From: Cytophagales bacterium
GTDB taxonomy: Bacteria > Bacteroidota > Bacteroidia > Cytophagales > Spirosomataceae
Direction: 5' to 3'
NCBI GenBank assembly: GCA_004292855.1
Contig: RDXN01000063.1
Coordinates: forward strand, 1-59,657
DNA: 59,657 nucleotides
Both the position numbers and the translations under genes were made by a program. Numbering within the stretch: the first letter of the stretch is position 1; the number at the start of each line of letters is the position of its first letter. The notes below the pieces were generated by a model. The model was not told the DNA's origin. It saw only the letters and a list, made by a program, of their open reading frames with translations, and did no database searches. Below, one piece after another: positions 9,030 through 31,603 of the stretch.

Positions 9030-9854
9030 ATGCTTGGCTTTCCGAATTGTAAAATCAACCTGGGGCTTCAGATTACCGAACGCCGTCCCGATGGCTACCA
9101 CAACTTAAACTCCTGCTTTTATCCGGTTGGCTGGTCCGATGTGGTGGAGGTAATCGAAGATCATTCGCTTACTGTTCCGGTACAGTTCACGGCTACCGGA
9201 ATCCCCATACCGGGCGATCCTGACCCAGCGAAAAATCTTTGTGTGAAGGCCTATCACGCACTCCGGGCCGATCATGACCTGCCGCCCGTGCGGATTCACC
9301 TGCACAAAATTGTGCCGATTGGCGCGGGCTTGGGGGGTGGCTCCGCCGATGCAGCCCTTGTACTCAAGCAACTTAACGGCCTGTTTGAATTGGGCCTGAG
9401 CCTTGCCCAACTCGAAAGCTACGCCCGCCCGCTCGGTGCCGACTGCGCCTTTTTTATTCAAAACCGCCCGATGTACTGCGTTCAAAAAGGCGACATGTTT
9501 GAGGAAATCAAGGTTGATCTAAGCGGCTACAGCATTCAGCTAATCTACCCCAATCTGGCTATCTCAACCGCCGAAGCCTACGCGGGTATCCGACCCCGCC
9601 AACCCGAAACACCCCTACGTGCGCTGCTCGAAGCCCCCATCGCGGGTTGGCGCGACCGCGTACACAACGACTTTGAAGACAGCCTGTTTCCTAAGTATCC
9701 AATTCTGGCCGACCTCAAAGCACAACTGTACGAGCAGGGGGCCGTTTACGCAGCTATGAGTGGGTCAGGTTCCACGGTATTCGGCATTTTTTCGGGCGAA
9801 CCGAACGGCGACGAGGCTTTCGGACGTTACACAGTCTGGCAAGGGAAATTATAA
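9030..9854 (+). CDS. ispE: 4-diphosphocytidyl-2-C-methyl-D-erythritol kinase
   Basis: 274 residues. GHMP kinase that phosphorylates the 2-hydroxyl of CDP-methylerythritol in the MEP isoprenoid pathway. Visible motifs are the opening PNCKINLGLQITERRPDGYHNL, the ATP-binding glycine-rich loop PIGAGLGGGSADAA (about 96-109), LGADCAFFI and the third motif MSGSGSTVFGIF near the end. The ATG at 9030 is used because family alignment begins there; the open frame upstream is translated palindrome. The stop overlaps the next ATG (TAATG), so it is probably co-transcribed with the oxidase subunit. Confidence 0.95.
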   Translation: MLGFPNCKINLGLQITERRPDGYHNLNSCFYPVGWSDVVEVIEDHSLTVPVQFTATGIPIPGDPDPAKNLCVKAYHALRADHDLPPVRIHLHKIVPIGAGLGGGSADAALVLKQLNGLFELGLSLAQLESYARPLGADCAFFIQNRPMYCVQKGDMFEEIKVDLSGYSIQLIYPNLAISTAEAYAGIRPRQPETPLRALLEAPIAGWRDRVHNDFEDSLFPKYPILADLKAQLYEQGAVYAAMSGSGSTVFGIFSGEPNGDEAFGRYTVWQGKL

Positions 9855-10459
9855 TGAGTAATTTACTTAAACGGCGGGAGCCGTTCCGGTTTATGGTTTG
9901 GTTGGGTATCGCAAGCAGCGTGTTGCTGTTCACGATATTGCTCGCCACCTACGTTGTCCGAAGCACCGGAACGGGTTGGGCCGAGGTTCGTTTGCCCAAC
10001 GTCTTTTTGATCAGCACCGTCGTTATTTTGCTCAGCAGCCTCTCGCTCCACAATGCCAATAACGCGTTCCGAACGGAGCGATTCGCGCAGTACCGCTCCA
10101 ACATGAGCGTCACGCTGATGCTTGGTATTTTATTCATCCTGCTGCAGGCCTGGGGTTGGCGGCAGATGGTCCTGGCGGGCGTCGGTTTGCAGGGCAACCC
10201 CGCCGGTGGATTCGTTTATATCCTGTCGGGGTTGCACCTGGTTCATATTCTGCTTGGTCTTATTTTTCTGATGGTCGCTCTGGCCGAAGCCATGCGCCGA
10301 CGCCACTACGTCGACTCGTTCGTATATAGTGTGAACCCGCCCAATCAGCTCAAATTAAAGCTTATTTCGCTATACTGGCACTTCGTTGATGTACTTTGGG
10401 TCGGCTTGTTCCTGTTTTTGCTCGTGCATCACGGCGTTGAGTGGAAGCTGCTGGGTTAG
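9854..10459 (+). CDS. Haem-copper oxidase subunit III
   Basis: 201 residues with five hydrophobic spans. The sequence SGLHLVHILLGLIFL and the C-terminal ISLYWHFVDVLWVGLFLFLL are the conserved helices of cytochrome c/quinol oxidase subunit III, which stabilises the catalytic subunit in the cytoplasmic membrane. The ATG shares its A with the ispE stop codon. Subunits I and II are not in the window, so this is either an extra copy or a separately located subunit. The end overlaps the convergent GMC gene by 4 nt. Confidence 0.88.
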   Translation: MSNLLKRREPFRFMVWLGIASSVLLFTILLATYVVRSTGTGWAEVRLPNVFLISTVVILLSSLSLHNANNAFRTERFAQYRSNMSVTLMLGILFILLQAWGWRQMVLAGVGLQGNPAGGFVYILSGLHLVHILLGLIFLMVALAEAMRRRHYVDSFVYSVNPPNQLKLKLISLYWHFVDVLWVGLFLFLLVHHGVEWKLLG

Positions 10460-19565: not shown

Positions 19566-21236
19566 TCACTTACCTGTATCAACGTTTACTTCCCGGAACA
19601 TGAACGCGTTGTCGCTGATTCTCAACGTCTTTCCGCTTGCAGTCGTTATGTTCCTGAGAATGACCTTCTTCGTCAGTACATAGGGGAATTTTTCCTGGTA
19701 GGACGCGTCCGTTAGCTGCGGATTGAAATTGGCGAAAATGGCCACCCCCTGATACGTTCCGGGATGCTGCCGGTCCGCCGTTGCAGTGTCGTCGATGCGT
19801 AGGTTGTCAATCGTGATTCGTTCCGGCATGTAGCACGTGTAGCCGAAATCGTGCAGCCCCGAATAGGAGCCGCTGATTAGAGCCGCGCTGATGGGTTTAC
19901 CATCTGCCGGTACAAAAACACAATTACGGATCACCAGCTCGCCCTGCCAGGTACTGCCATAATCGGAGCGTAGATTGACGAGGCTCCGGCCCCGAATGGT
20001 CGAATTCTCGACCAGCAAAAGCCCGCTGCCAATGGCATTGATGCCCATGTGGCCCAGCGTCGAGTTGCGGATGGTGGCGTTGGCTACGCCCTGATGGGCA
20101 TCGAACCGGGAAAGTGTACACTGGTCATACAGCATATTTTTGCAGAAGTTAGACCCCAGAATACCCCAATACGTAGGGTCGTTGATGTTGTTGGTCTGAC
20201 TGCAATTTATAAACGACACGTTGAGCGCGCGGTTGACCGACAGGTCGTAACTACCCATTGAAACGGGCTTACCAGCCGCGCCAATCGTGCTATAGGTCTT
20301 GTGTCCGGTCAGAAGGGTGTTCTTCACGGTTACGTAGGCGCAGTCGCCGATGTTGATAAAACCACCATAGGGCGCACCGTGATCTTCTTCGTCCGTGATG
20401 CGGTGTTCCAGGTTCTCAACCAGCACATTAGACCGCCTGACGGCAATGTTTCGGTTATAATAGGTGTACTTCGATTCGGCTTTATTGGCAATGGTGGTAA
20501 AACGCCCCCCGCTGATTGTCAGGGGTTTCTCATCCAAAGGCAGGGCCGTAATGTCCGTAATTCGGTCGAAATCCCAGATGATGGGGGCGTTCATATCGAC
20601 GTTGCCGTTCTTGTCAACCAAAAAAAGATCGGTTTGTGAAGAGCCGTTGTTTTGGTTAAGCCCAAACCGAATATAGTGCTTCACGGTGGCGTTGGTGACC
20701 GTGATCAGACAGGGGCCGGGAAACGACACGTCGACTTTTTTCTGATTTCTCTTTAGCGAGGTTATCGTTTCGAGTTTAAACGGTTTGAGGTCCGAACCGA
20801 CCGTGAATACCGGCGCATTACGATTTTTCACGTCCGTGTCGTCAATAATGAAGGCCGCTGTGCCAAACTGGGTGTCGGTCCGAATGAGGGCTGTGCGTTC
20901 CTTGCCGCCAATATAGTAGGTGGCTCCCTCGTTGGCTTTCACCACAAGACTGTGCCGATTAGCCACGGCATGGGTGGCAGCGATGGCGTCGATATCATCG
21001 GTTTTGCCATCGCCTTTGGCACCAAAGTCGCTGTACCGAACGAATCCGGCGGCTTTGAATTTGGCCAAATTCGTTGGTGACACATTCACGTGTAATGCTC
21101 CATTCTCATGGGTGTATGTCCGATTTTCGCCTTTTTCGGAGGTAACCACTACGGAGTCGAGGGGATTCTTAGTCTGCCCCTGCGTGACGAATGCACTGAG
21201 CGATAGAACGAGCGTCAGCAACCAATACTTTTTCAT
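19566..21236 (-). CDS. Exported right-handed beta-helix protein (pectate lyase superfamily)
   Basis: 556 residues with a signal peptide (ending VTQGQTK). FVRYSDFGAKGDGKTDDIDAIAATHA is the start signature of the pectate-lyase-3 superfamily, shared by polygalacturonases, rhamnogalacturonases and phage tail spikes. Successive parallel strands follow (VTVKNTLLTGH, NATIRNSTLGHMG, LVENSTIRGRSLV, LVIRNCVFVPADG). No catalytic Asp trio is obvious, so activity could be lyase, hydrolase or only binding. It lies downstream of the ABC ATPase and apiose-dehydrogenase-like genes on the same strand but has its own promoter box. A pectin-type role fits the apiosidase nearby. Confidence 0.8.
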   Translation of the reverse strand: MKKYWLLTLVLSLSAFVTQGQTKNPLDSVVVTSEKGENRTYTHENGALHVNVSPTNLAKFKAAGFVRYSDFGAKGDGKTDDIDAIAATHAVANRHSLVVKANEGATYYIGGKERTALIRTDTQFGTAAFIIDDTDVKNRNAPVFTVGSDLKPFKLETITSLKRNQKKVDVSFPGPCLITVTNATVKHYIRFGLNQNNGSSQTDLFLVDKNGNVDMNAPIIWDFDRITDITALPLDEKPLTISGGRFTTIANKAESKYTYYNRNIAVRRSNVLVENLEHRITDEEDHGAPYGGFINIGDCAYVTVKNTLLTGHKTYSTIGAAGKPVSMGSYDLSVNRALNVSFINCSQTNNINDPTYWGILGSNFCKNMLYDQCTLSRFDAHQGVANATIRNSTLGHMGINAIGSGLLLVENSTIRGRSLVNLRSDYGSTWQGELVIRNCVFVPADGKPISAALISGSYSGLHDFGYTCYMPERITIDNLRIDDTATADRQHPGTYQGVAIFANFNPQLTDASYQEKFPYVLTKKVILRNITTASGKTLRISDNAFMFREVNVDTGK

Positions 21237-21308
21237 ACGACAATCAGGGTGTTTTGAATAGAAACCGAACGGACCTACGAAGCAACGTAGCAAAAGGGCC
21301 GGACAGAA

Positions 21309-21316
21309 CAAAGGTA
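21309..21316 (-). promoter_or_regulatory. TAnnTTTG box for the beta-helix gene
   Basis: TACCTTTG on the minus strand, 73 nt upstream of the ATG at 21236 and inside the 105-nt gap after the ABC ATPase gene. It suggests partly independent expression from the apsD-ATPase unit. Confidence 0.5.
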
Positions 21317-21341
21317 GTATTCAACGGCTCTCTGTAATAAC

Positions 21342-22805
21342 CTACGATGTGGCCAGGTTCATAATGCTTTCTTCGGTGGCTTCGGCCCGGCTCAACTCAC
21401 CAGAAAGTTGCCCGTCGCGCACAACAAGAATACGGTCAGCTAGGTTTAGAAGTTCAGGTAGTTCGCTGGATATAAGCAAAATAGCTTTTCCTTGTCCCGC
21501 CAATTGGCGCAGTAACTCGTAAATCTCTGCTTTGGCACCTACGTCGATGCCGTGTGTGGGTTCGTCCACCATCAGCACGTCGGGGTCGGTCAGGAGCCAT
21601 CGGGCCAGCATCACTTTCTGCTGATTACCGCCACTGAGCGAGTCGACTCGCGTTTGCACGGAAGGTGTTCGGATGCGGAGTTGCTGCCGGTAGGTTTCGG
21701 CCAATGCCAGCACGCGCCGACCCGCATACCAGGCCCCGGATGCGGGTGGTTTCACGGCCACGATGTTGCCCGCCACCGACTGATCGGCGAACAGGCCCAG
21801 CGTTTTGCGTTCTTCGGGCAGATAGCCGATACCCAATTTCACGGCATCGGCGGGGTGCTGGATGTTGACAATGGCCCCGCGCAGGCTGATTTCGCCCTTT
21901 TTATGAGCATCCATGCCAAAAATAGCCTGGGCAATCTCGGTTCGGCCTGCCCCAATCAAGCCTGCCAACCCCAGAATTTCGCCCCGGTGCAGCGTGAAAC
22001 TGACATCCCTAAACCGCCCACCCGACAAGCCCGACACCGACAGCAAGACCTCGCCCGTAGCCGCCGATTCGGTGGTATTGGCGAGCAGGTCGCGGCCCAC
22101 CATCAGGCGAATCAGACCGTCGGTGGTTAACTCGTTTGTGGGGAATGTTCCCTGATATTGTCCGTCTTTCAACACTGATACTCGGTCGGCGAGGGCAAAG
22201 ATTTCGGTGAGCCGGTGCGAGATATAGACAATAGCCTTACCCTGTTGGCGCAGTTGCCGGAGCAGGGTAAACAGCGTGTTCGTTTCGCGGTCGGTGAGGG
22301 AGGCCGTTGGTTCGTCGAGCAGCAGCATGTCCGGGTTTTGCGACAACGCTTTGGCAATTTCGACCATCTGTTTTTGCCCCGGCGACAGGTCGGCTACGCG
22401 GCTTTCAGGTCGTATGTCGGTCAGGTTGAGTCGATTGAGCAACGCTTGCGTATCGGCGTAAAGAGTGCGATATTGAATCAGGCCAAACCGGTTGCGGGGC
22501 TGCCGATTGACGAAGATATTTTCGGCCACCGTGAGATTGTCAACCACGCTAAGGTGCTGATAAACAATGGATATGCCCAATTTGGCGGCATGGGCGGGGC
22601 CGTCGATTACCACCGCCCCGCCGTTGATCCGTAGTTGCCCCGAACTGGGTTGGAGGTTGCCCGTCAGCAGGTTTAGTAAGGTGCTTTTGCCCGCGCCATT
22701 CTCCCCGCACAAGGCGTGGATTTCGCCCGATTGTACGGTCAGTGACACACCATCTAAGGCGGTTACGCCGGGAAATAGTTTGCTAATGTTGTGGAGTTCG
22801 AGCAT
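21342..22805 (-). CDS. Sugar ABC transporter ATP-binding protein, RbsA type (tandem ATPase)
   Basis: 487 residues with two fused nucleotide-binding domains. Domain 1 has Walker A GENGAGKST (34-42), signature LSPGQKQ and Walker B MLLLDEPTA. Domain 2 has the degenerate Walker A GLIGAGRTE, signature LSGGNQQKVMLARW and VLMVDEPTHGID, the usual asymmetry of ribose/galactose-type importers. It powers import through a RbsC-like permease; the only one in the window is at 28103-29059, on the other strand with the binding lipoprotein. It begins 13 nt after the dehydrogenase stop. Cargo is inferred to be D-apiose from context. Confidence 0.93.
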   Translation of the reverse strand: MLELHNISKLFPGVTALDGVSLTVQSGEIHALCGENGAGKSTLLNLLTGNLQPSSGQLRINGGAVVIDGPAHAAKLGISIVYQHLSVVDNLTVAENIFVNRQPRNRFGLIQYRTLYADTQALLNRLNLTDIRPESRVADLSPGQKQMVEIAKALSQNPDMLLLDEPTASLTDRETNTLFTLLRQLRQQGKAIVYISHRLTEIFALADRVSVLKDGQYQGTFPTNELTTDGLIRLMVGRDLLANTTESAATGEVLLSVSGLSGGRFRDVSFTLHRGEILGLAGLIGAGRTEIAQAIFGMDAHKKGEISLRGAIVNIQHPADAVKLGIGYLPEERKTLGLFADQSVAGNIVAVKPPASGAWYAGRRVLALAETYRQQLRIRTPSVQTRVDSLSGGNQQKVMLARWLLTDPDVLMVDEPTHGIDVGAKAEIYELLRQLAGQGKAILLISSELPELLNLADRILVVRDGQLSGELSRAEATEESIMNLATS

Positions 22806-22818
22806 GGCGATTGGGCGT

Positions 22819-23874
22819 TTAGAGGTTGATTACCTGATTGGTACGCGCCGAGTCATAAGCCGCATACACGAGCCGGATCGTTTCGAAATTATCGGCCCCG
22901 GTGGTTTCGGCGGGGCCACCAGCGGCCCCGCCCCGCCCTTGCAAATCGGTCAGGAGATTTCGGTTGCAATCGACAATCGACGCATGAACAACGGCATAGG
23001 CCGGGTCGGCCCAGGCATAGACGGGGGGCGTGGCTATCTGGCTTTGGGTGCTGCGCTCACTGCCCTCGGTGCGAGTAGTCGTTCGTAAGGTAAAATCACG
23101 ATCCAGCACCACCGACCCCGCCGATCCCTCGACCGTCACGAGCGTTTGCGGGAAAACCTCATGCTCCAGCACCGACGCATACGACATACTCACTGAACAG
23201 GCCAAGCCACTTTGCATCGTCATCAGTACCTGCGCTACGTCTTCGCCCCGGATGTTGGGGTTCACGCGGGTGGTTTGGCAATAGATCGACCGGGCTTCGC
23301 CGAATAGAAACCGGCAGATGTCTAGGATGTGTGAACCAATATCAGTCAGGATAAACTGCTCTAATTCAGCTAAGAACGGCTGATTCTCAAACACCGGAAA
23401 AGCCGACTGAAACGACACCCGTGCTGCAAACGGTTCGCCAATCACGCCCGAATCGAGTACGGCTTTGAGTTGACGGATGGGAGCCTGCCAGCGGAAATTT
23501 TCGTGGATATACAGTCGCACCCCTGCTTGTTGGCATACGTCGAGCATCTGCCGGGCAGCGGCCAAACTCGGCCCCATTGGTTTCTGGCAAATCACGTCGA
23601 GTTTGTGTTGGGCGGCTTTGGTGGTGAAGTGCAGGTGTGTATCGACATCGGTGATGATATCGACAAAATCGAGTTCGTCGCGGTGGCGGTCGAGCAATTC
23701 GTCAATGTCGTCGTAGACGTAAGGTACGTTATATTGACTGGCAAAAACTTCGGCGCGGGCGCGGGTTCGGTTGTAAAGGGCTACTAATTCTACGCCTTCC
23801 ATCTCAAACCAGGCAGGTAGCTGATAGTTGGCCCAAAAGCCCGTGCCGATCACCGCAAACTTTAATTTCTGCAT
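22819..23874 (-). CDS. apsD: Gfo/Idh/MocA family dehydrogenase, probable D-apiose dehydrogenase
   Basis: 351 residues. Rossmann motif AVIGTGFWANYQ (7-18) and the catalytic Lys in ICQKPMGP (K98) are those of the Gfo/Idh/MocA family. From memory of characterised D-apiose dehydrogenases (ApsD, NAD-dependent, giving D-apionolactone), the stretches DFVDIITDVDTH, IHENFRWQ, FPVFENQPFLAE, FILTDIGSHILD and ADPAYAVVHASIVDCNRNLL look very close, but no alignment was run. Next to it are an apionate-oxidoisomerase-like gene and a GH140-like apiosidase, which supports the call. It is the first gene of the leftward unit, 129 nt from the divergent regulator. Confidence 0.8.
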   Translation of the reverse strand: MQKLKFAVIGTGFWANYQLPAWFEMEGVELVALYNRTRARAEVFASQYNVPYVYDDIDELLDRHRDELDFVDIITDVDTHLHFTTKAAQHKLDVICQKPMGPSLAAARQMLDVCQQAGVRLYIHENFRWQAPIRQLKAVLDSGVIGEPFAARVSFQSAFPVFENQPFLAELEQFILTDIGSHILDICRFLFGEARSIYCQTTRVNPNIRGEDVAQVLMTMQSGLACSVSMSYASVLEHEVFPQTLVTVEGSAGSVVLDRDFTLRTTTRTEGSERSTQSQIATPPVYAWADPAYAVVHASIVDCNRNLLTDLQGRGGAAGGPAETTGADNFETIRLVYAAYDSARTNQVINL

Positions 23875-23894
23875 GAAAATGTTTGATAAGTTTA

Positions 23895-23940
23895 AAATAA
23901 ACGTACCTTCGCTCCAACAATACTCTACTGTACTCTACTG
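23895..23940. promoter_or_regulatory. Divergent control region with tandem 10-nt repeat
   Basis: TACTCTACTG occurs twice in tandem (23921-23930, 23931-23940) between the dehydrogenase and regulator starts. One helical turn of spacing would put two protein contacts on the same face. On the minus strand TACGTTTA (23899-23906 region) is one base off the -7 box of the dehydrogenase gene. The adjacent GntR-type regulator is the obvious candidate ligand. Confidence 0.4.
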
Positions 23941-24003
23941 CTTATTGTGAGCAAATATAGTCAGTTTTCTATTGGTTGTTCTTCTTTTTTAGAAATCCGA
24001 GGT

Positions 24004-25014
24004 ATGAATGATGTGACAGTCGATCCGGCCACCAATCAGCCTAAGTATCAGCAGTTAATCGACGCGGTGTTGACGGGTATTGAAGGAGGCACGTTGACGT
24101 TGGGTCAGCAACTCCCCTCGATCAGCGAGTTGGCCGGGCAGCAGGGGGTGGCGAAAGTGACGGTGGCGAAGGCGTACGAAGCCCTCCGGCAGCGGGGTAT
24201 TGTGTTGTCGCAACACGGCAAGGGTTTTTACGTGGCCTCCACCGACGTGCGGACACCTCTCAACGTGCTGGTGATTTTCGATACGTTGAATGCTTACAAA
24301 GAAATGCTCTACGAGGCTCTGAAGACTGCTTTGCCGCCCGACACGACCCTCAATGTGTATTTTCACCACTACGACCGCACCTTGTTCGAGAGCCTGATTC
24401 GGCATAATGTGGGTCGGCACAACGCCTATGTGGTGATGCCCCATTTTAATGAAGACGTATCCGAACTGTTAGCCCTGATGCCGGCCGATAAACTACTATT
24501 GATCGACCAGACGATACCCCATTTGCCGGGTGATTTTTCGGCTGTTTATCAGGACTTTGACGAAGACATTTTCCACGCGCTCACCACCGCCATCGACCGA
24601 CTTCGGCGATACAGTCAACTGACGATGGTGTTGTCGAGAGATCATTTTCAGTACGTTCCACTCGGTACATTAGCTGGGTTTGAGCGGTTTGGGCAAGAGA
24701 GTGGGTTTCCCGTTCGGGTGGTTGATAATTACCACGACGACCTTGTGCAGCCGGGTGAAGCGTTTTTGCTGTTTGCCGAGCGCGATTTGATCGCCCTCAT
24801 CAAGCGGGTCGGCCGGGCGGGTTGGCAACTGGGGCAAGAGGTAGGACTGATTGCCTACGACGATACGCCCGTGAAGGAAATTTTGGCGGGTGGCATCACT
24901 GTGATCTCTACCGATTTTGCCCAAATGGGCCAAACGGCGGGCGAGTTACTTACGACCCGAACACGGGCGAAACGGGCCAATCCGGGAGGGCTAATTCTGC
25001 GGCAATCGCTATGA
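24004..25014 (+). CDS. GntR-type regulator with LacI-like sugar-binding domain
   Basis: 336 residues. A winged helix of the GntR family occupies about 14-78 (QQLPSISELAGQQGVAKVTVAKAYEALRQRG, then SQHGKGFYV). The remainder resembles a periplasmic-binding-protein/LacI effector domain (VLVIFDTLNAYKEMLYEAL, LLIDQTIPH, TMVLSRDHFQYVPLGTLAGFERF, VGLIAYDDTPVKEIL, GQTAGELL). Such hybrids usually sense a sugar. The ATG at 24004 fits the domain start; the GTG at 23947 is less likely. It is the first gene of a six-gene unit, its stop overlapping the next start (ATGA), so it is presumably autoregulated and controls both divergent arms. Confidence 0.88.
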   Translation: MNDVTVDPATNQPKYQQLIDAVLTGIEGGTLTLGQQLPSISELAGQQGVAKVTVAKAYEALRQRGIVLSQHGKGFYVASTDVRTPLNVLVIFDTLNAYKEMLYEALKTALPPDTTLNVYFHHYDRTLFESLIRHNVGRHNAYVVMPHFNEDVSELLALMPADKLLLIDQTIPHLPGDFSAVYQDFDEDIFHALTTAIDRLRRYSQLTMVLSRDHFQYVPLGTLAGFERFGQESGFPVRVVDNYHDDLVQPGEAFLLFAERDLIALIKRVGRAGWQLGQEVGLIAYDDTPVKEILAGGITVISTDFAQMGQTAGELLTTRTRAKRANPGGLILRQSL

Positions 25015-25853
25015 CCATGCAACTCGGCATCAGCACGTACACCTACGGTTGGTCCGCTTCGGCGCACCGAGTGGGCACCGCATCGGCGGACCGATCCGAA
25101 AACCCGCTCGATGAGCAAGGTTTGCTTGACCGGGCAACGGAATTCGGGCTGCGATTGGTGCAGATCGGAGACAATTTACCATTGCACGAATTGCTACAGG
25201 AGCGAATAGTAAACTTGAAGAATTCGGCTGAAAAACAGGGTATTGCAATTGAATTAGGGGCGCGGGGCCTGACCGAAACACACCTCGAAACCTACATCGG
25301 CTTATCCCAAACCCTGAACAGTCGCCTGCTCCGGTTTGTGATCGACGAGGGTGCATACGAGCCATCAATTGATACTATTATCGGTCTGTTGCGGAACGCC
25401 GTACCCGCGCTCGAAGGGGCCAACCTGACGCTGGGCCTGGAGAACCACGACCGCTTGCTGGCCCGCGAATTTGCCGAGATCGTTGAACGAGTGGGTAGCC
25501 CAAACGTGGGTATCTGTTTAGATTCTGTGAACTCGATGGGGGCAGGGGAGGGGCTAATTGAGGTAGTAAGTACGTTGGCCCCGTACACGGTGAACCTGCA
25601 CCTGAAAGACTTCGGTATCAGGCGATTGCCGCATCTGATGGGTTTTCAGATTGATGGACGACCGGCGGGACAGGGAATGCTCAACATCCCCTGGCTCGTG
25701 GAGCAGGTAAGCCAATACGGGCGGTGCCAAACGGCCATTCTGGAGCAGTGGGTTGTACCTGAAGAGACATTGGCCGAAACCATTGCTAAAGAGGCAGCCT
25801 GGGCCGACGAGAGTATAATGTACCTACAAAAAACAGGTCTTTTCAAGAATTAA
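25011..25853 (+). CDS. oiaC: TIM-barrel isomerase-like protein, probable 3-oxo-isoapionate decarboxylase
   Basis: 280 residues of the AP-endonuclease-2/xylose-isomerase-like fold. Metal-site strands are visible: ENHDR, GICLDSVNS, NLHLKDF and the terminal ILEQWVVP. VQIGDNLPLHEL and HLMGFQIDGRPAGQG resemble what I recall of OiaC, which decarboxylates 3-oxo-isoapionate to L-erythrulose. Context (apsD-like and apnO-like genes) favours that role over a generic sugar-phosphate isomerase. The ATG at 25011 overlaps the regulator stop. Residues about 14-34 appear a few residues longer than expected and are encoded by an imperfect inverted repeat (25051-25097) sharing 15 nt with the palindrome at 8908-9022. 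Confidence 0.7.
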   Translation: MTMQLGISTYTYGWSASAHRVGTASADRSENPLDEQGLLDRATEFGLRLVQIGDNLPLHELLQERIVNLKNSAEKQGIAIELGARGLTETHLETYIGLSQTLNSRLLRFVIDEGAYEPSIDTIIGLLRNAVPALEGANLTLGLENHDRLLAREFAEIVERVGSPNVGICLDSVNSMGAGEGLIEVVSTLAPYTVNLHLKDFGIRRLPHLMGFQIDGRPAGQGMLNIPWLVEQVSQYGRCQTAILEQWVVPEETLAETIAKEAAWADESIMYLQKTGLFKN

Positions 25854-25868
25854 TAACGAACGAATGTC

Positions 25869-26711
25869 ATGACTAAAATTGCTTTGGTTGGGGCTGGTGG
25901 CAAAATGGGTTGCCGCCTGACCGACAACTTTCTGAAAACCCCCGACTACGCCGTTTCGTACCTCGAAATTGCGCCCGCCGGTCTCGAAAACCTCCGGCAA
26001 CGGGGCGTATCGGTGAGCGAACAAGGCCCCGCCGTAGCCGATGCCGACGTGGTCATTCTGGCCCTGCCCGACGTGGCCATCGGCGGCTTGTCGGCCACCA
26101 TTATCCCACAAATGAAGCCGGGTGCGCTGGTGCTGACCCTCGACCCTGCCGCCCCGCTCGACGGCGTGATTGCCCACCGCGATGACCTAGGGTACGTGAT
26201 TGCGCACCCCTGCCACCCGTCGGTGTTCAACTGGGAGCCGACCGAAGCGGCCTTCCGGGATTTTTACGGCGGCATTACGGCCAAACAATCCATTGTGGTG
26301 GCCCTCATGCACGGCTCGGAGGAACACTACGCGCTGGGCGAAGCCGTGTCGCAGGCCATGTACGGTCCCATCGACAAGACGTACCGCATCACGCTCGAAC
26401 AGATGGCGATCCTGGAACCGGCGATGGTCGAAACGTTGGCCCAAACCTGCATGGAAGTGGTGAAAGAAGGTTTCGATAAGATTGTAGAACTCGGCGTACC
26501 CGAAGCAGCCGCCCGCGATTTTGTGTTGGGTCACCTCCGCATTCAGATGGCCGTGCTGTTCAAAGAAGTCAACGGTACGTTCTCCGACGCGGCTTATAAG
26601 ATCAGCAAACGGGCCAAGCCGATCCTGTTCCGCGAGGGCTGGCAACGCATTTTCGAGATGGACGACATCCGCGAACAAGTCAAAGACATAACCGCCAACC
26701 CAACCGCCTAA
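25869..26711 (+). CDS. apnO: NAD-binding oxidoisomerase, probable D-apionate oxidoisomerase
   Basis: 280 residues. N-terminal Rossmann motif LVGAGGKMG (6-14) and VVILALPD, then HPCHPSVFNWE, GGITAKQSIVVALMHG, and a helical C-terminal domain (LEQMAILEPAMVETLAQT, EAAARDFVLGHLRIQMAVLF) of the type annotated as phosphogluconate-dehydrogenase C-terminal-like. These match my recollection of ApnO, which converts D-apionate to 3-oxo-isoapionate with NAD+. It lies 15 nt after the decarboxylase-like gene and its stop overlaps the glycosidase start (TAATG), so they are translationally linked. A different branched aldonate is the main alternative. Confidence 0.77.
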   Translation: MTKIALVGAGGKMGCRLTDNFLKTPDYAVSYLEIAPAGLENLRQRGVSVSEQGPAVADADVVILALPDVAIGGLSATIIPQMKPGALVLTLDPAAPLDGVIAHRDDLGYVIAHPCHPSVFNWEPTEAAFRDFYGGITAKQSIVVALMHGSEEHYALGEAVSQAMYGPIDKTYRITLEQMAILEPAMVETLAQTCMEVVKEGFDKIVELGVPEAAARDFVLGHLRIQMAVLFKEVNGTFSDAAYKISKRAKPILFREGWQRIFEMDDIREQVKDITANPTA

Positions 26712-28099
26712 TGAAAAAAATACTGCTTTCCGGCCTGCTTATGGCCTTTTGCCTGTCTGTTCAGGCGCAGCTACCGACCACAACCGGCCCGTTGAAGGTG
26801 TCGGACAACAAACGTTACTTAGTGCGGCAAGATGGTATGCCGTTTTTCTGGCTGGGCGATACGGCCTGGGAGTTGTTTCACAGACTTAACCGTGAGGAGG
26901 CCGACAAATACCTCAAACGCCGGGCCGAGCAGGGGTTCACGGTGATTCAGGCGGTGGCCCTGGCCGAACTCGACGGCCTGAACGACCCCAACCCCTACGG
27001 CGAAAAACCCTTGCTGAACAACGACCCCGCCAAGCCCAACGAAGCCTATTTCAAACACGTCGATTATGTGGTGGACAAGGCCGCGCAGTACGGGCTGATG
27101 ATTGGTTTTTTGCCCACCTGGGGCGATAAATTAAGCAAAGAACGCTGGGGGAAAGGCCCCGAAATCTTCAACCCCGACAACGCCCGCACCTACGGGCAGT
27201 ATGTGGGCAACCGCTACAAAAACCGCCCGAACATTATCTGGATTCTGGGGGGCGACCGCAACCCCCGCGACGGCTCGCAGGACGTGGCCGTGTGGCAGGC
27301 AATGGCCGAGGGGATTCAGGCGGGGGTGGGTGGCCCCGACAAAGCTCTAATGTCGTTCCACCCGCAACCCAACAGCACCGGCGGAGGGGCATCGAAGTGG
27401 TTCAATAACGATAACTGGTTGGATTTCAACATGCATCAGAATGGGCATTGCCGGTTCACGCCGGTGTATGACCATATCGCTGTCTCGTATAACCGCACTC
27501 CGACCCGGCCCACGATGGATGCCGAGCCGATCTACGAAGACCACCCGGTTTGTTTCAACGCCAAAGACCTAGGTACGTCCAACGCCCACGATGTACGGCA
27601 ATATGCCTACCTCGACCTGTTCGCGGGCGCGTTTGGGCATACCTACGGTTGCCACGATATCTGGCAAATGTACAGCACTGGTCGGGAACCCATAAACGGC
27701 CCGCATATGTCCTGGTCCGAAGCAATCGAGTTGCCAGCCGCCAACCAGATGCAGTTCGTGAAGCGGCTCATCATGGCCCGCCCCATGCTCGACCGCGTAC
27801 CGGATCAATCCTTGATCGTAGAAAACAACTTAACCCCCGCCGACCGGATTCAGGCCACGCGGGGCCGCGATTACGCGTTTATCTATACCTCGTCGGGCAA
27901 GCCATTTACCGTGAATCCGGGCAAAATTTCGGGCACGTCGATAACGGCAACCTGGTACGACCCACGTACTGGCAAAACCAAATCGGCTCCGCTCTTTGCC
28001 AACAAAGCCCCGCAGTTGTTCACGCCCCCCGATGCGGGTTACGGCCACGACTGGGTCCTGATCCTAGACGATGCGGCCAAAAACTACCCCATGCCTTAG
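26711..28099 (+). CDS. Exported GH140-like glycosidase (DUF4038), probable apiosidase
   Basis: 462 residues with a signal peptide (MKKILLSGLLMAFCLSVQA). The DUF4038 barrel shows the family run PFFWLGDTAWELFHRLNREEADKYL, ILGGDRNPRDG, MSFHPQ, the acid region DAEPIYEDHPV and SWSEAIELPAANQM. A C-terminal beta domain (GKPFTVNPGKI, ATWYDPRTGKT, WVLILDD) resembles collagen-binding-type domain 2. GH140 enzymes known from Bacteroides release D-apiose from rhamnogalacturonan II side chains. Its place inside an operon with ApsD-, ApnO- and OiaC-like genes and an importer strongly supports apiose as product. Location periplasmic or outer surface. Confidence 0.82.
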   Translation: MKKILLSGLLMAFCLSVQAQLPTTTGPLKVSDNKRYLVRQDGMPFFWLGDTAWELFHRLNREEADKYLKRRAEQGFTVIQAVALAELDGLNDPNPYGEKPLLNNDPAKPNEAYFKHVDYVVDKAAQYGLMIGFLPTWGDKLSKERWGKGPEIFNPDNARTYGQYVGNRYKNRPNIIWILGGDRNPRDGSQDVAVWQAMAEGIQAGVGGPDKALMSFHPQPNSTGGGASKWFNNDNWLDFNMHQNGHCRFTPVYDHIAVSYNRTPTRPTMDAEPIYEDHPVCFNAKDLGTSNAHDVRQYAYLDLFAGAFGHTYGCHDIWQMYSTGREPINGPHMSWSEAIELPAANQMQFVKRLIMARPMLDRVPDQSLIVENNLTPADRIQATRGRDYAFIYTSSGKPFTVNPGKISGTSITATWYDPRTGKTKSAPLFANKAPQLFTPPDAGYGHDWVLILDDAAKNYPMP

Positions 28100-28102
28100 C
28101 CG

Positions 28103-29059
28103 ATGAAACAGCTCCTACAGGAACGCACCTACTCCCTGACGCTCACCATTTTACTGGTGGGCATTGGGGCGGCTGTGGCCTTTCCGCAGACCTTCCCCAC
28201 GTTTGGCAACTGGAGTCAGTTGCTGCTGAACCTCTCCATCGACACCATCGTGGCAGTGGGTATGATGCTCCTGCTGGTATCGGGCGTGTTCGATTTGTCG
28301 GTGGGGTCGGTGGTGGCGTTTGCGGGGGGAATTGCCGCATATGCCATGATTCAGTTGGGTTGGTCGGTTGGCTTGGCTGTTGGGTTGGCCCTTCTGGTGA
28401 GCGCGGCCATCGGTGCGGTTAATGGGTATTTGATTGCTTATCAAGGTGTTAATCCCATGATTCAGACACTGGCGATGATGGGCATCGTGCGCGGTGGCGC
28501 GTTGGTTATCAGCGGATCGGGTATTCAGAACCTGCCCTATTGGTTCACGGCCATTAGTCAATCGCGGTTGTTGGGGGTGCAAATGCCTGTTTGGTATATG
28601 CTGCTGACGGTGAGCGTGTTTGCGTTTCTGATGCACAAAACCGTGTTTTTCCGACGCTACTACTACATCGGGGGCAACGAAAAAGCCGCCGACCTGTCGG
28701 GTATTCGGGTTCGTCGCATGAAACTTTACGGCTTCGTGCTGACCTCGTTGCTGGCGGGTGTGGCGGGTTTGTTATTAACCTCGCGGCTCGGAACGGCTCT
28801 GCCAACGGCGGGTCGGGGGCTGGAACTGAGGGTGATTACCGCCGTGATTTTGGGCGGGGCGAGTTTGTCGGGGGGACACGGAAAAATTGTGGGTGCCCTG
28901 CTTGGAGCTGTGTTCATGGGCCTAGTTAGCAACATCATGGTCCTGGCGCGGGTGTCGGGCTACTGGCAGGAAATCATTCTCGGCCTGATTCTCATTACGG
29001 CAGTCTGGACAGACATGGCCTTGCAAAAACGACTACGTCAATCGCTTCATCGGGCATGA
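28103..29059 (+). CDS. Sugar ABC transporter permease, RbsC type
   Basis: 318 residues, mostly hydrophobic with about nine spans. Typical stretches are GMMLLLVSGVFDLSVGSVVAFAG, INPMIQTLAMMGIVRGGALVISG-like (here NPMIQTLAMMGIVRGG), YYIGGNEKAADLSGI and VILGGASLSGGHGKIVGALLG; the EAA-like cytoplasmic loop is the GGNEKAADLSGI segment. It forms the membrane channel of a ribose/xylose-type importer. The start is 3 nt after the glycosidase stop and the stop overlaps the binding-protein start (ATGA). Confidence 0.92.
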   Translation: MKQLLQERTYSLTLTILLVGIGAAVAFPQTFPTFGNWSQLLLNLSIDTIVAVGMMLLLVSGVFDLSVGSVVAFAGGIAAYAMIQLGWSVGLAVGLALLVSAAIGAVNGYLIAYQGVNPMIQTLAMMGIVRGGALVISGSGIQNLPYWFTAISQSRLLGVQMPVWYMLLTVSVFAFLMHKTVFFRRYYYIGGNEKAADLSGIRVRRMKLYGFVLTSLLAGVAGLLLTSRLGTALPTAGRGLELRVITAVILGGASLSGGHGKIVGALLGAVFMGLVSNIMVLARVSGYWQEIILGLILITAVWTDMALQKRLRQSLHRA

Positions 29060-30057
29060 AAAAACACCTCGCTTTATTGGTAATCCTGCTGACTTCCTGT
29101 GAGTTACCGCCCCGCGATGGTACGGCCAACGTCGGCCAAAAAGTTGGGGTGCAGGCTGCTGCGTCAGGCACTGAGGAAGAATACGTGATGATTACGACCG
29201 CTGTAACGATGCCCATGTACGTGAACCACGATCAGGCCACGTTCAAACGGTGGGGTAAAGAACGCAACGTGAAGGTGTCCATCCTCGGCCCCGCCGAGTG
29301 GGACGTACCGGCGCAAATAAATACCATCGAAGAGGTGATCGGGACGCGGCCATCGGGCTTGCTTATCAACGGCACCGACCCCGCCATCGGCCCGGTTATC
29401 GACAAGGCGGTCGCGGCTGGCATCCCGACCGTGGTCTATGACTCCGACATCCCCAACTCCCGGCGCGATGCGTTTCTTGGCACCGACTGGTACGAAATCG
29501 GGCGGATGCAGGGTGAAGAAATGGTCCGTCTGCTGGGCGGTAAAGGCAAGATAGCGTACATGGGTATCCTCGGCCTTACCAACATGGAAACGGGTTTCCG
29601 AGGCCTGCTCGACGTACTGAAAAAATACCCCGGTATCGAAGTCGTGGGTAAGTTCGACGACAAGGCTAACGTGGAAGAAGCCGCCCGAATCACGGCGGAT
29701 TTGCTCGCGGCCCACCCCGATTTGGCGGGCCTGTGCGGGTTCGATTCCAACTCCGGGCCGGGGATCGCGCTGGCCGTGAAAGAAGCCCGCAAAGCCGGAA
29801 AGGTCAAAATTACGACGGTCGATTGGGAGCCGGAACACCTGCAACTGGTGCGAGAGGGGGTGATTCAGATGTTGGCGGGTCAAAAACGCGAACTCTTCAC
29901 CTGGTACGGGGCGCAGTTTCTCTACGACCGCGTTCACCAAACCAACCGGCTCTCGGCCAACGACGTGCAGGTGGGTGTTACCAACATTCCCACCTCCGTA
30001 AACACGGGTTTGCTACGGATTACCAAAAAGAATGTGGACGAGTTTATCAACCGCTGA
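29056..30057 (+). CDS. Periplasmic sugar-binding lipoprotein of the ABC importer
   Basis: 333 residues. A lipobox LLTSC (Cys15) anchors it, probably to the outer face of the inner membrane. The periplasmic-binding fold follows: VMITTAVTMPMYVNHDQATFKRWGKE, GLLINGTDPAIGPVIDKAVAAGIPTVVYDSD, FLGTDWYEIGRMQGEEMVRLLGGKGKIAY, LCGFDSNSGPG and ITTVDWEPEHL. This is the ribose-type cluster. It ends the six-gene rightward unit. Given the neighbours the ligand is inferred to be free apiose. Confidence 0.92.
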   Translation: MKKHLALLVILLTSCELPPRDGTANVGQKVGVQAAASGTEEEYVMITTAVTMPMYVNHDQATFKRWGKERNVKVSILGPAEWDVPAQINTIEEVIGTRPSGLLINGTDPAIGPVIDKAVAAGIPTVVYDSDIPNSRRDAFLGTDWYEIGRMQGEEMVRLLGGKGKIAYMGILGLTNMETGFRGLLDVLKKYPGIEVVGKFDDKANVEEAARITADLLAAHPDLAGLCGFDSNSGPGIALAVKEARKAGKVKITTVDWEPEHLQLVREGVIQMLAGQKRELFTWYGAQFLYDRVHQTNRLSANDVQVGVTNIPTSVNTGLLRITKKNVDEFINR

Positions 30058-30098: not shown

Positions 30099-31163
30099 CT
30101 ACAACCTCCCTTTCTCTACAGCCTCCGCCCCGTGCCGCGACAGCGCGTGAACACCTGTCAATAAACCAGCAAAGCGTTCGTCGGTGGTTAGGCCCTTTTT
30201 ATACCGAGCATAAATTTGCTGAATGACTACGGCGTTTTTGAACAGGCCGAAGACGTAGTAATACAGAATGTTCGATACATCACGACCCGACCGTTCTGCG
30301 TAGCGATTGGCGAACTCCTGCCGGGTCAGATTTCCCGGTAACCACGTCAGGTTGAACGACTTACGAAAGGGGTCGTCTATAGCCTCGGCCCAGTAGGAGA
30401 GCGAGGTGCCGAGGTCCATCATCGGGTCGCCAACGGTACACATTTCCCAATCCAACACGGCCAAAATTCGGGATAGATCGGGTGCGAGCACGACATTGTC
30501 GTACTTGAAATCGTTGTGAATCAAGGTAGGCGGGTTCTCAATGGGCATGGTTTGGTCGAGCCAATGGGCTAGTTCGGTCATGGCCGGTACGTCGTCGGTT
30601 TGGGAAGCCAAATACCGCTTGTGCCACCCATCGACCTGCCGTCGGATATAACCTTCGGGCTTACCCAAGCCAATCAATCCCGTCTGCTGAGTATCGAGCG
30701 CGTGGAGGTCAACAAGCGCGTCGACAAGCCCCTCCGAAAGATGGCGCATGGTGTCGGGCGATAGGCCCAACTTTGGGGCGGTTTGTGCCCGGAGAATTAC
30801 ACCCTGCACCCGCTCCATCACGTAGAACGGGCACCCCATCACGGTCTCATCGTCGCAGAAAACGACCGGCCTCGGAATGCGTTCATAACCAGCCGATTGC
30901 AAGGTCGACAATACCCGAAACTCGCGGCCCATGTCGTGCCCGCCTTTGATGTCTTTCGCTCCAAACGGTGGCCGACGGAGTACATAGTCGCCCCGGTCAG
31001 TGGAAACCAGATAGGTTAAATTGGAATAACCACCGGGAAACTGCGTGATGTCGGTAATTGTGCCAACGCCCGTTTGGTTGTCGTTCAGATACGTTTGCAA
31101 AGCCGCCCGGTCCAGTTCTTCACCGGGCCTGGTAACAGAAGAAGAGTCTGTAATAATGTGCAT
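30099..31163 (-). CDS. Phosphotransferase (APH/ACAD10-11 N-domain-like kinase)
   Basis: 354 residues. A kinase-like fold with nucleotide loop FPGGYSNLTYLV, VLRRPPFGAK with the ATP-contact Lys, the Brenner motif HNDFKYDN (216-223) and metal site LDWEMCTVGDP (237-247). In animals the same domain is fused to acyl-CoA dehydrogenases ACAD10/11, which break down 4-hydroxy acids via 4-phospho-acyl-CoA. Here the partner dehydrogenase is a separate gene at 31843-33072, with a toxin-antitoxin module between. Its ATG overlaps the PIN gene stop by one base. Confidence 0.88.
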   Translation of the reverse strand: MHIITDSSSVTRPGEELDRAALQTYLNDNQTGVGTITDITQFPGGYSNLTYLVSTDRGDYVLRRPPFGAKDIKGGHDMGREFRVLSTLQSAGYERIPRPVVFCDDETVMGCPFYVMERVQGVILRAQTAPKLGLSPDTMRHLSEGLVDALVDLHALDTQQTGLIGLGKPEGYIRRQVDGWHKRYLASQTDDVPAMTELAHWLDQTMPIENPPTLIHNDFKYDNVVLAPDLSRILAVLDWEMCTVGDPMMDLGTSLSYWAEAIDDPFRKSFNLTWLPGNLTRQEFANRYAERSGRDVSNILYYYVFGLFKNAVVIQQIYARYKKGLTTDERFAGLLTGVHALSRHGAEAVEKGRL

Positions 31164-31603
31164 TAGGGTTGAGCGGTAAATTCCCGAACAAAATCGTCAA
31201 ATAGTTTCACTCGATCATACCCTTTATCCTGTAGCCCGTTGTGAAGAACTTTGTCTCTTGTTAGCAAAACAGTTTGCAATTCTTCGTTCAGGGCGACGTA
31301 CAATACATCTTTAGGATCAATGTCATCACAAAGTTCACGAGCTTTTTTGATGGACTCCTCCGAAATGACAAAATCCGGTAAGATAATCAAGCCCTGAAAA
31401 AGCCGAATAGTAAACTCGCGAAGTTTTGCGGGATCAGCTCTCGTTTTCTTGAGAATCGTCTGTTTGTATTTCTGTAACTCAAGCAAGGCAAAATCAGGGC
31501 TATAGAAAACGTAGTGGTCAATAAGTTCTTCGTATAGCCCTTTTTGCCTGATTACTGCCGAGAACAAGATATTTGCATCAATAACAAACTTGTCTACTGC
31601 CAT
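31163..31603 (-). CDS. PIN-domain protein, probable toxin RNase
   Basis: 146 residues. The N-terminal FVIDANILFSAVI carries the first metal Asp (D9); further acidic sites are in the central ARELCDDIDPKDVLYVAL and LLTRDKVLHNGL. PIN toxins cleave RNA with two metal ions. The antitoxin-like gene upstream overlaps its start by 10 nt, the usual VapBC-type arrangement. The pair is embedded between an acyl-CoA dehydrogenase and its phosphotransferase partner, which suggests insertion into an existing operon. Confidence 0.85.
   Translation of the reverse strand: MAVDKFVIDANILFSAVIRQKGLYEELIDHYVFYSPDFALLELQKYKQTILKKTRADPAKLREFTIRLFQGLIILPDFVISEESIKKARELCDDIDPKDVLYVALNEELQTVLLTRDKVLHNGLQDKGYDRVKLFDDFVREFTAQP

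What the first reader, a model, noticed from the sequence alone, without database searches (positions are those of the whole stretch)
19566..30057. Candidate D-apiose release, import and catabolism locus
Seen: a GH140/DUF4038-like secreted enzyme, ribose-type ABC importer, Gfo/Idh/MocA enzyme, PGDH-C-like NAD enzyme, TIM-barrel decarboxylase-like protein and a GntR/LacI hybrid, in two divergent tightly spaced units. Known: GH140 frees D-apiose from rhamnogalacturonan II; ApsD, ApnO and OiaC convert D-apiose via D-apionate and 3-oxo-isoapionate to L-erythrulose. Inference: here outside release, transport and breakdown are joined in one regulon in a Cytophagales bacterium, without SusC/D genes.
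Basis: partly seen in the sequence, partly recalled or inferred. Interest (0 to 1): 0.82.

Follow-up and report, generated by a model that had tools for sequence, protein, structure and literature searches.

The report
Plant-sugar apiose release-and-catabolism operon pair
A Cytophagales bacterium keeps the genes to cut the rare plant sugar D-apiose off plant molecules, import it and break it down in two back-to-back operons that probably share one switch; the chemistry is known from other bacteria, and the assembly, the switch site and the missing lactonase step are the new parts.

Summary
Window 21342-30057 carries an ApsD-like Gfo/Idh/MocA enzyme, a ribose-type ABC importer, a GntR/LacI hybrid regulator, an AP_endonuc_2 TIM barrel, an ApnO-like PGDH_C enzyme and a GH140, in two divergent, tightly packed units. 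Apiose is the best reading: nearest solved relatives are a GH140 apiosidase (8t9w, 69% identity), 5uhw (40%) and 5t57. In 80 ApnO loci the TIM barrel and OiaK/RuBisCO-like genes almost exclude each other (36 TIM only, 34 OiaK/RLP only, 2 both, 8 neither); GH140 sits near ApnO in 24 of 36 TIM-only loci but 1 of 34 others. That puts the TIM barrel at the 3-oxo-isoapionate step, as expected of OiaC.

Corrections: the gene at 19566-21236 is not part of it. The lactonase ApnL is missing here; a homologue lies elsewhere in the genome beside a second GH140. RG-II and 'outside' release are not shown. No Dak1 kinase for L-erythrulose was found.

New: a tandem TACTS operator candidate at 23921-23940, found in 11 loci counting the window and the only perfect copy in the genome; and a TIM gene only 38% identical between two Fibrisoma species whose other locus proteins are 84-96% identical. 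New variant of a known kind.

The parts
22819..23874 (-). ApsD-like D-apiose dehydrogenase (Gfo/Idh/MocA), first gene of the minus-strand unit
   Evidence: PDB 5uhw E 3.9e-79, aligned 1-349 of 351; AF2 model (pLDDT 94.2) matches 5uhw TM 0.93/0.95, 40% identity; homologue in 49 of 80 ApnO loci
21342..22805 (-). Ribose/arabinose-type sugar ABC importer ATPase (two ABC domains)
   Evidence: PF00005, AraG/RbsA-like below equivalog cut-offs
23904..23911 (+). TACCTTCG, -7-like box for the plus-strand unit (TAnnTTTG with one mismatch; consensus recalled)
   Evidence: read; a similar box, with variation, stands at this place in most of the 11 aligned promoters
23921..23940 (+). Candidate operator: four tandem pentamers TACTS (TACTC TACTG TACTC TACTG)
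   Evidence: 0 matches in 100 shuffles; only 0-mismatch copy in the 6.25 Mb genome; same element in 10 related loci
23952..23959 (-). TATATTTG, -7-like box for the minus-strand unit
   Evidence: alignment
24004..25014 (+). GntR/LacI hybrid regulator (ATG at 24004; the listed GTG at 23947 is probably upstream leader)
   Evidence: PF00392 + PF13377; homologue at the same seat in L033-L037, L147, L148, L152
25011..25853 (+). AP_endonuc_2 TIM barrel, candidate 3-oxo-isoapionate decarboxylase (OiaC-like); overlaps the regulator by 4 bases
   Evidence: PF01261; near-exclusion with OiaK/RLP; E144, D171, H197, E245 (metal-ligand role recalled) invariant in 27 rows
25869..26711 (+). ApnO-like D-apionate oxidoisomerase (PGDH_C)
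   Evidence: PF16896; PDB 5t57 E 1e-81; 47-49% identical to four proteobacterial copies from loci with OiaK-, RuBisCO-like or ApnL genes
26711..28099 (+). GH140 apiosidase with signal peptide
   Evidence: PF13204; PDB 8t9w E 9.2e-217, 69% identity, TM 0.92/0.98
28103..29059 (+). Sugar ABC importer permease
   Evidence: PF02653
29056..30057 (+). Sugar-binding lipoprotein of the importer
   Evidence: PF13407; 55-82% identical homologue in the ApnO loci of relatives that carry one (L033-L037, L040-L042, L067; L147-L152, L154-L158)
19566..21236 (-). Secreted beta-helix-like protein downstream of the ATPase; judged NOT part of the system
   Evidence: no Pfam/NCBIfam match (fold named by reading only); no match in 84 ApnO loci nor 21 more or partly the same loci; spread, distances

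Best explanation
The two divergent units form one D-apiose utilisation locus. GH140 removes terminal D-apiose from plant apiosides, most likely in the periplasm. The lipoprotein/ABC importer brings the sugar in. ApsD oxidises it to apionolactone, which opens spontaneously or by the ApnL-like enzyme encoded elsewhere in the genome. ApnO turns D-apionate into 3-oxo-isoapionate. The TIM barrel, a probably metal-dependent AP_endonuc_2 enzyme, decarboxylates it to L-erythrulose, in place of the OiaK kinase plus RuBisCO-like route. A GntR/LacI hybrid regulator binding the tandem TACTS element between the divergent genes probably controls both units together. Shown: gene content, family relations, context statistics, conserved element. 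Inferred: every reaction, the import specificity, the cell location and the repression.
For: Closest solved relatives 8t9w, 5uhw, 5t57. In 80 ApnO loci 36 have the TIM gene only, 34 OiaK/RLP only, 2 both, 8 neither; in the 58 with at least 4 kb each side 27/28/1/2. GH140 at 40% identity or more in 24 of 36 TIM-only loci against 1 of 34 OiaK/RLP-only. No RuBisCO-like gene in the genome, so OiaX/OiaT-type steps are not available. Proteobacterial ApnO loci hold an OiaK and an ApnL over NCBIfam cut-off and a gene the record names OiaX. In a Pantoea plasmid a distant TIM relative (26%) directly precedes ApnO and follows a dihydroxyacetone-kinase-family and a triose-phosphate-isomerase-family gene, with rpiB and tkt nearby. 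Operator.
Against: ApnL has no match in the window. No Dak1 kinase for L-erythrulose in the genome, so the end of the pathway is open. The TIM barrel has no close solved relative (only Art22, 5.9e-05) and no NCBIfam match; I had no OiaC reference sequence, so the name rests on context. Of 6 plasmid TIM relatives opened only 1 has ApnO in the stretch. The 80 loci are the best of 501 by similarity to the window and related to one another, so Fisher p 1.2e-12 overstates independence; several of the 8 'neither' loci are cut by contig ends. The ABC importer is in only 16 of 36 TIM-only loci. The Cupriavidus RuBisCO-like protein scores below the OiaX cut-off (473 against 700).
Confidence: 0.8

Rival explanations
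1. A locus for another pentose or branched sugar acid, with GH140 acting on a different terminal sugar.
For: Gfo/Idh/MocA and AP_endonuc_2 families act on many substrates (established); the ABC importer matches only general ribose/arabinose/xylose types below cut-off; 5 of 6 plasmid TIM relatives opened have no ApnO in the stretch.
Against: GH140 is 69% identical to a deposited apiosidase; ApnO homologues stand in loci with OiaK, OiaX and ApnL genes; GH140 at 40% identity or more lies near ApnO in 25 of 80 loci.
Confidence: 0.1
2. Part of an RG-II degradation system, with apiose taken extracellularly from pectin.
For: BT_1012 of the same family is solved (5msy) and known from RG-II work (recalled); 37% identity.
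Against: Closer to the mangrove apiosidase than to BT_1012; signal peptide without lipobox or added C-terminal domain (by eye); no SusC/D on the contig. Neighbours that I scanned of the other three GH140 genes are an ApnL-like gene, hisG/hisD, and a metallophosphatase; only some neighbours were scanned, and RG-II enzyme families were not searched.
Confidence: 0.2
3. The TIM barrel is an isomerase or epimerase, and 3-oxo-isoapionate is handled by an unlinked enzyme.
For: AP_endonuc_2 members are largely isomerases and epimerases (established); no direct OiaC comparison was possible; two loci (L062, L067) hold both the TIM gene and OiaK/RLP.
Against: It otherwise takes the place of the OiaK/RLP pair that consumes the ApnO product; no RuBisCO-like gene in the genome.
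Confidence: 0.15

Closest known systems
Oxidative D-apiose pathway ApsD-ApnL-ApnO with OiaC branch (Carter et al. 2018, recalled; paper not held)
   Same: ApsD-like and ApnO-like enzymes and a TIM-barrel gene at the 3-oxo-isoapionate node; ribose-type ABC importer beside a Gfo/Idh/MocA gene, as in Martelella, Shinella and Salipiger plasmids
   Different: Joined to a GH140; no ApnL in the locus; regulator is a GntR/LacI hybrid, not the NanR-annotated type; binding protein only 23-28% identical over 145-256 aa to those of proteobacterial loci, or no match
D-apiose cluster of strain LCG007 (PMC11747546; four passages seen)
   Same: Annotated D-apionolactonase, D-apiose dehydrogenase, D-apionate oxidoisomerase; growth on D-apiose reported
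   Different: Uses 3-oxoisoapionate kinase and 4-phosphate decarboxylase; no GH140 in the passages seen
D-apiose cluster of Pectobacterium/Escherichia (PMC13001218; 12 of 19 passages seen)
   Same: Growth on D-apiose as sole carbon source; [quoted passage not shown]
   Different: Described there with a D-apiose isomerase (or putative oxidoreductases in its place) and transketolases (MetaCyc PWY-8089)
GH140 apiosidase 8t9w (mangrove metagenome) and BT_1012 (5msy)
   Same: Same family and fold; 69% and 37% identity to the window protein
   Different: Locus context of 8t9w not known to me; BT_1012 is an RG-II enzyme (recalled)

Membership tests
GH140 apiosidase | Apiosidase catalytic domain over the curated cut-off | tested here: met
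   420.2 bits against 26.5
GH140 apiosidase | Catalytic acidic pair (GGD Asp182 and EP Glu272; roles recalled) conserved | tested here: met
   Both invariant in 22 aligned GH140; both aligned with the same letters in 4qfu
GH140 apiosidase | Release of D-apiose | not testable with these tools
   needs an assay
ApsD D-apiose dehydrogenase | Nearest solved relative is the Agrobacterium enzyme 5uhw (that this is ApsD is recalled) | tested here: met
   E 3.9e-79, next hit 1.2e-20; 40% identity in the model comparison
ApnO D-apionate oxidoisomerase | PGDH_C domain and nearest solved relative 5t57 (that this is ApnO is recalled) | tested here: met
   second solved relative 3c24 at 2.9e-63; the Cupriavidus pinatubonensis homologue lies in a stretch with an OiaK-like kinase and a RuBisCO-like gene
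OiaC 3-oxo-isoapionate decarboxylase | Sequence similarity to characterised OiaC | not tested
   no reference sequence held; no NCBIfam match, no close PDB match
OiaC 3-oxo-isoapionate decarboxylase | Takes the place of OiaK plus a RuBisCO-like protein in ApnO loci | tested here: met
   36 TIM only, 34 OiaK/RLP only, 2 both, 8 neither of 80
Oxidative apiose pathway with ApnL | Apionolactonase encoded in the locus | tested here: not met
   no match in the window with four ApnL queries
Oxidative apiose pathway with ApnL | Apionolactonase encoded in the genome | tested here: inconclusive
   C45:45398-46834; only NCBIfam match ApnL, E 4.3e-84, but 283 bits against a cut-off of 750
SusC/D polysaccharide utilisation locus | susC/susD pair | tested here: not met
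   none on C105

The most novel reading that the evidence does not exclude
A SusC/D-free, periplasmic apioside-scavenging regulon of Cytophagales: one GntR/LacI hybrid regulator reads an unusual tandem-pentamer operator covering the start sites of both divergent units, the decarboxylase seat is held by interchangeable TIM-barrel types, and the lactonase step has moved to a second GH140 locus in the genome.
Probability: 0.4. Interest if true: 0.55.

Novelty: new variant of a known kind. Interest (0 to 1): 0.45.

Why it matters
It ties the enzyme that frees apiose to the enzymes that consume it, in Bacteroidota, Verrucomicrobiota, Acidobacteriota and Paenibacillus records, and offers named proteins to test for release, import and decarboxylation. 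The 38%-identity exchange of the TIM gene between two Fibrisoma species predicts that both types do the same job, and the TACTS element gives a direct test of co-regulation.

Tried and rejected
Beta-helix gene 19566-21236 as a member: rejected, not linked in relatives. A wider TACTS regulon: no match within 3 mismatches in the 19.9 kb around the C45 ApnL-GH140 pair; the only other genome hit within 2 mismatches lies at the start of a TonB-receptor-like reading frame on C91, so I treat it as chance. Palindromic operator: no inverted repeat listed at the same place in all nine promoters. GC content as a sign of transfer: 56.1% in 22819-30057 against 53.3% outside 19566-30057, within the 51-57% range of 7.2 kb windows. 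Paper searches were mostly noise.

Literature on GH140 joined to apionate genes: none noticed in the listings (some listings were capped); the library holds only open-licence papers, so this does not show that it is unpublished. PMC11539071: passages seen, nothing used.
Full report
WHAT IS THERE. The minus-strand unit is ApsD-like 22819-23874, then ABC ATPase 21342-22805. The plus-strand unit is regulator 24004-25014, TIM barrel 25011-25853, ApnO-like 25869-26711, GH140 26711-28099, permease 28103-29059, binding lipoprotein 29056-30057. Domains. NCBIfam gives no equivalog over its cut-off among the hits shown for the nine proteins scanned (for the ATPase only the best 25 of 190 are shown). The genome (6.25 Mb, 96.5% complete) has 4 GH140 genes and 1 PGDH_C gene.

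ENZYME ASSIGNMENT. GH140: best solved relative 8t9w, titled a GH140 apiosidase from a mangrove metagenome (E 9.2e-217; 69% identity, TM 0.92/0.98 with an AF2 model of pLDDT 89); BT_1012 is 37% identical. ApsD-like: 5uhw, 3.9e-79, then a drop to 1.2e-20; model TM 0.93/0.95, 40% identity. That 5uhw is ApsD and 5t57 is ApnO is recalled from Carter et al. 2018, which is not held. ApnO-like: 5t57, 1e-81, and 48% identity to a Cupriavidus pinatubonensis copy whose stretch holds a RuBisCO-like protein and a four-carbon sugar acid kinase (the RuBisCO-like one scores below the OiaX cut-off). Another ApnO homologue stands next to an OiaK over cut-off; a Shinella one shares its stretch with an ABC importer, a Gfo/Idh/MocA gene, an ApnL over cut-off and a gene the record names OiaX.

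THE DECARBOXYLASE STEP. Counting a TIM match at E 1e-5 and OiaK/RLP matches at E 1e-4 over at least 80 residues, 36 loci have TIM only, 34 OiaK/RLP only, 2 both (L062, L067), 8 neither. With at least 4 kb on each side (58 loci) the counts are 27, 28, 1 and 2. Several 'neither' loci are short or cut; one, L086, has a 40-residue RuBisCO-like match at its end. Kinship was not corrected for. The genome has no RuBisCO-like gene (5 of 14 control genomes ring). Four residues that look like the AP_endonuc_2 metal set (E144, D171, H197, E245; role recalled) are invariant in 27 rows. Six plasmid TIM relatives were opened: a dihydroxyacetone-kinase gene is adjacent or one gene away in 3 of 6, transketolase genes are in the stretch in 4 of 6, and ApnO in 1 of 6 (Pantoea). 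This fits an L-erythrulose product but does not prove it.

GH140 LINK. GH140 at 40% identity or more lies in 24 of 36 TIM-only loci, 1 of 34 OiaK/RLP-only, 0 of 2 both, 0 of 8 neither; weaker matches (22-28%) in L054, L076, L080, L104 and L108 were not counted. Carriers include Bacteroidota, Verrucomicrobiota, a Luteitalea MAG, a MAG labelled Rubrivivax (L048), a Terriglobia MAG (L103, the one OiaK/RLP case) and Paenibacillus. The transporter differs: ribose-type ABC here; in 9 Bacteroidota loci, 7 of them with such a GH140, a permease whose one scanned member matches Ureide_permease and Sugar_transport over cut-off; in 3 Paenibacillaceae loci another ABC permease pair (named by reading).

LACTONASE. 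Four ApnL queries find nothing in the window. Of the 21 related loci, 13 have an ApnL-like gene and 8 do not (L148, L149, L150, L152, L153, L155, L158, L159, the last on an 8 kb contig). In L033-L035 it directly follows the ATPase; in L147 it starts about 1.7 kb beyond it. In the window that seat is held by the beta-helix-like gene. The genome holds one ApnL-like gene at C45:45398-46834 (38% to that of L034), whose only NCBIfam match is ApnL (E 4.3e-84, below the equivalog cut-off), 110 bases from a GH140 on the same strand. The pathway therefore looks split over two loci.

SWITCH. Between the divergent genes lies TACTCTACTGTACTCTACTG (23921-23940): no match in 100 shuffles, the only 0-mismatch copy in the genome. 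In 97 other loci scanned (1.67 Mb, a few of them from the same genomes), hits with 0-1 mismatch to a 15-base form appear only in the matching promoter of L033-L037, L147-L150 and L152; all other hits have 2 mismatches. Nine of these eleven loci, the window included, have the regulator gene there; L149 and L150 keep the element without a regulator match. Regulator-like matches at 35-44% in L042, L059 and L063 come without the element. The element lies between TACCTTCG (+) and TATATTTG (-), which resemble the Bacteroidota -7 box (recalled); the box alone is weak evidence (40 in the window, 27.6 expected).

TIM EXCHANGE. Fibrisoma limi and F. montanum are 84-96% identical in the eight other locus proteins compared but 38% in the TIM protein. 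The trees agree: ApnO joins them (99/98) while TIM puts F. limi with Spirosoma profusum (100/99) and F. montanum with the window's set (97/92).

DISTRIBUTION. Of 150 family genomes 21 have a match; 20 of these, the window's own among them, hold a full-length ApnO, and G038 has only a short weak hit. None of the three other same-genus genomes drawn has a full-length copy (one is 71% complete). In the order, 52 of 291 match, but only 13 with more than 350 bits.

OPEN POINTS. No Dak1 kinase (3 of 14 controls ring), so the L-erythrulose fate is unknown; other kinases were not searched. Source glycoside and GH140 location are inferred. OiaC was not compared directly.

Noticed in passing
L162:9402-12898 (G000:C45): Two-gene unit of an ApnL-like lactonase and a second GH140 in the same genome, without the TACTS element within 3 mismatches.
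   Followed up: partly
L033 versus L034, TIM seat (about 9138-10001): In-place exchange of a 38%-identical TIM-barrel gene between two Fibrisoma species in an otherwise 84-96% identical locus.
   Followed up: yes
window 19566-21236: Beta-helix-like secreted protein found in 62 of 150 family genomes (own included) with no Pfam or NCBIfam match; function unknown.
   Followed up: partly
L055:5577-6578 and 8 further loci: Ureide-permease/sugar-transport-like membrane protein recurring near TIM and ApnO genes in 9 Bacteroidota loci, 7 with a GH140; a candidate apiose transporter.
   Followed up: no
L062 and L067: Loci that carry both the TIM gene and OiaK plus a RuBisCO-like gene.
   Followed up: no
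window 31163-31603: Short PIN-domain-like protein (read by eye) next to an aminoglycoside-phosphotransferase-like gene (also by eye).
   Followed up: no
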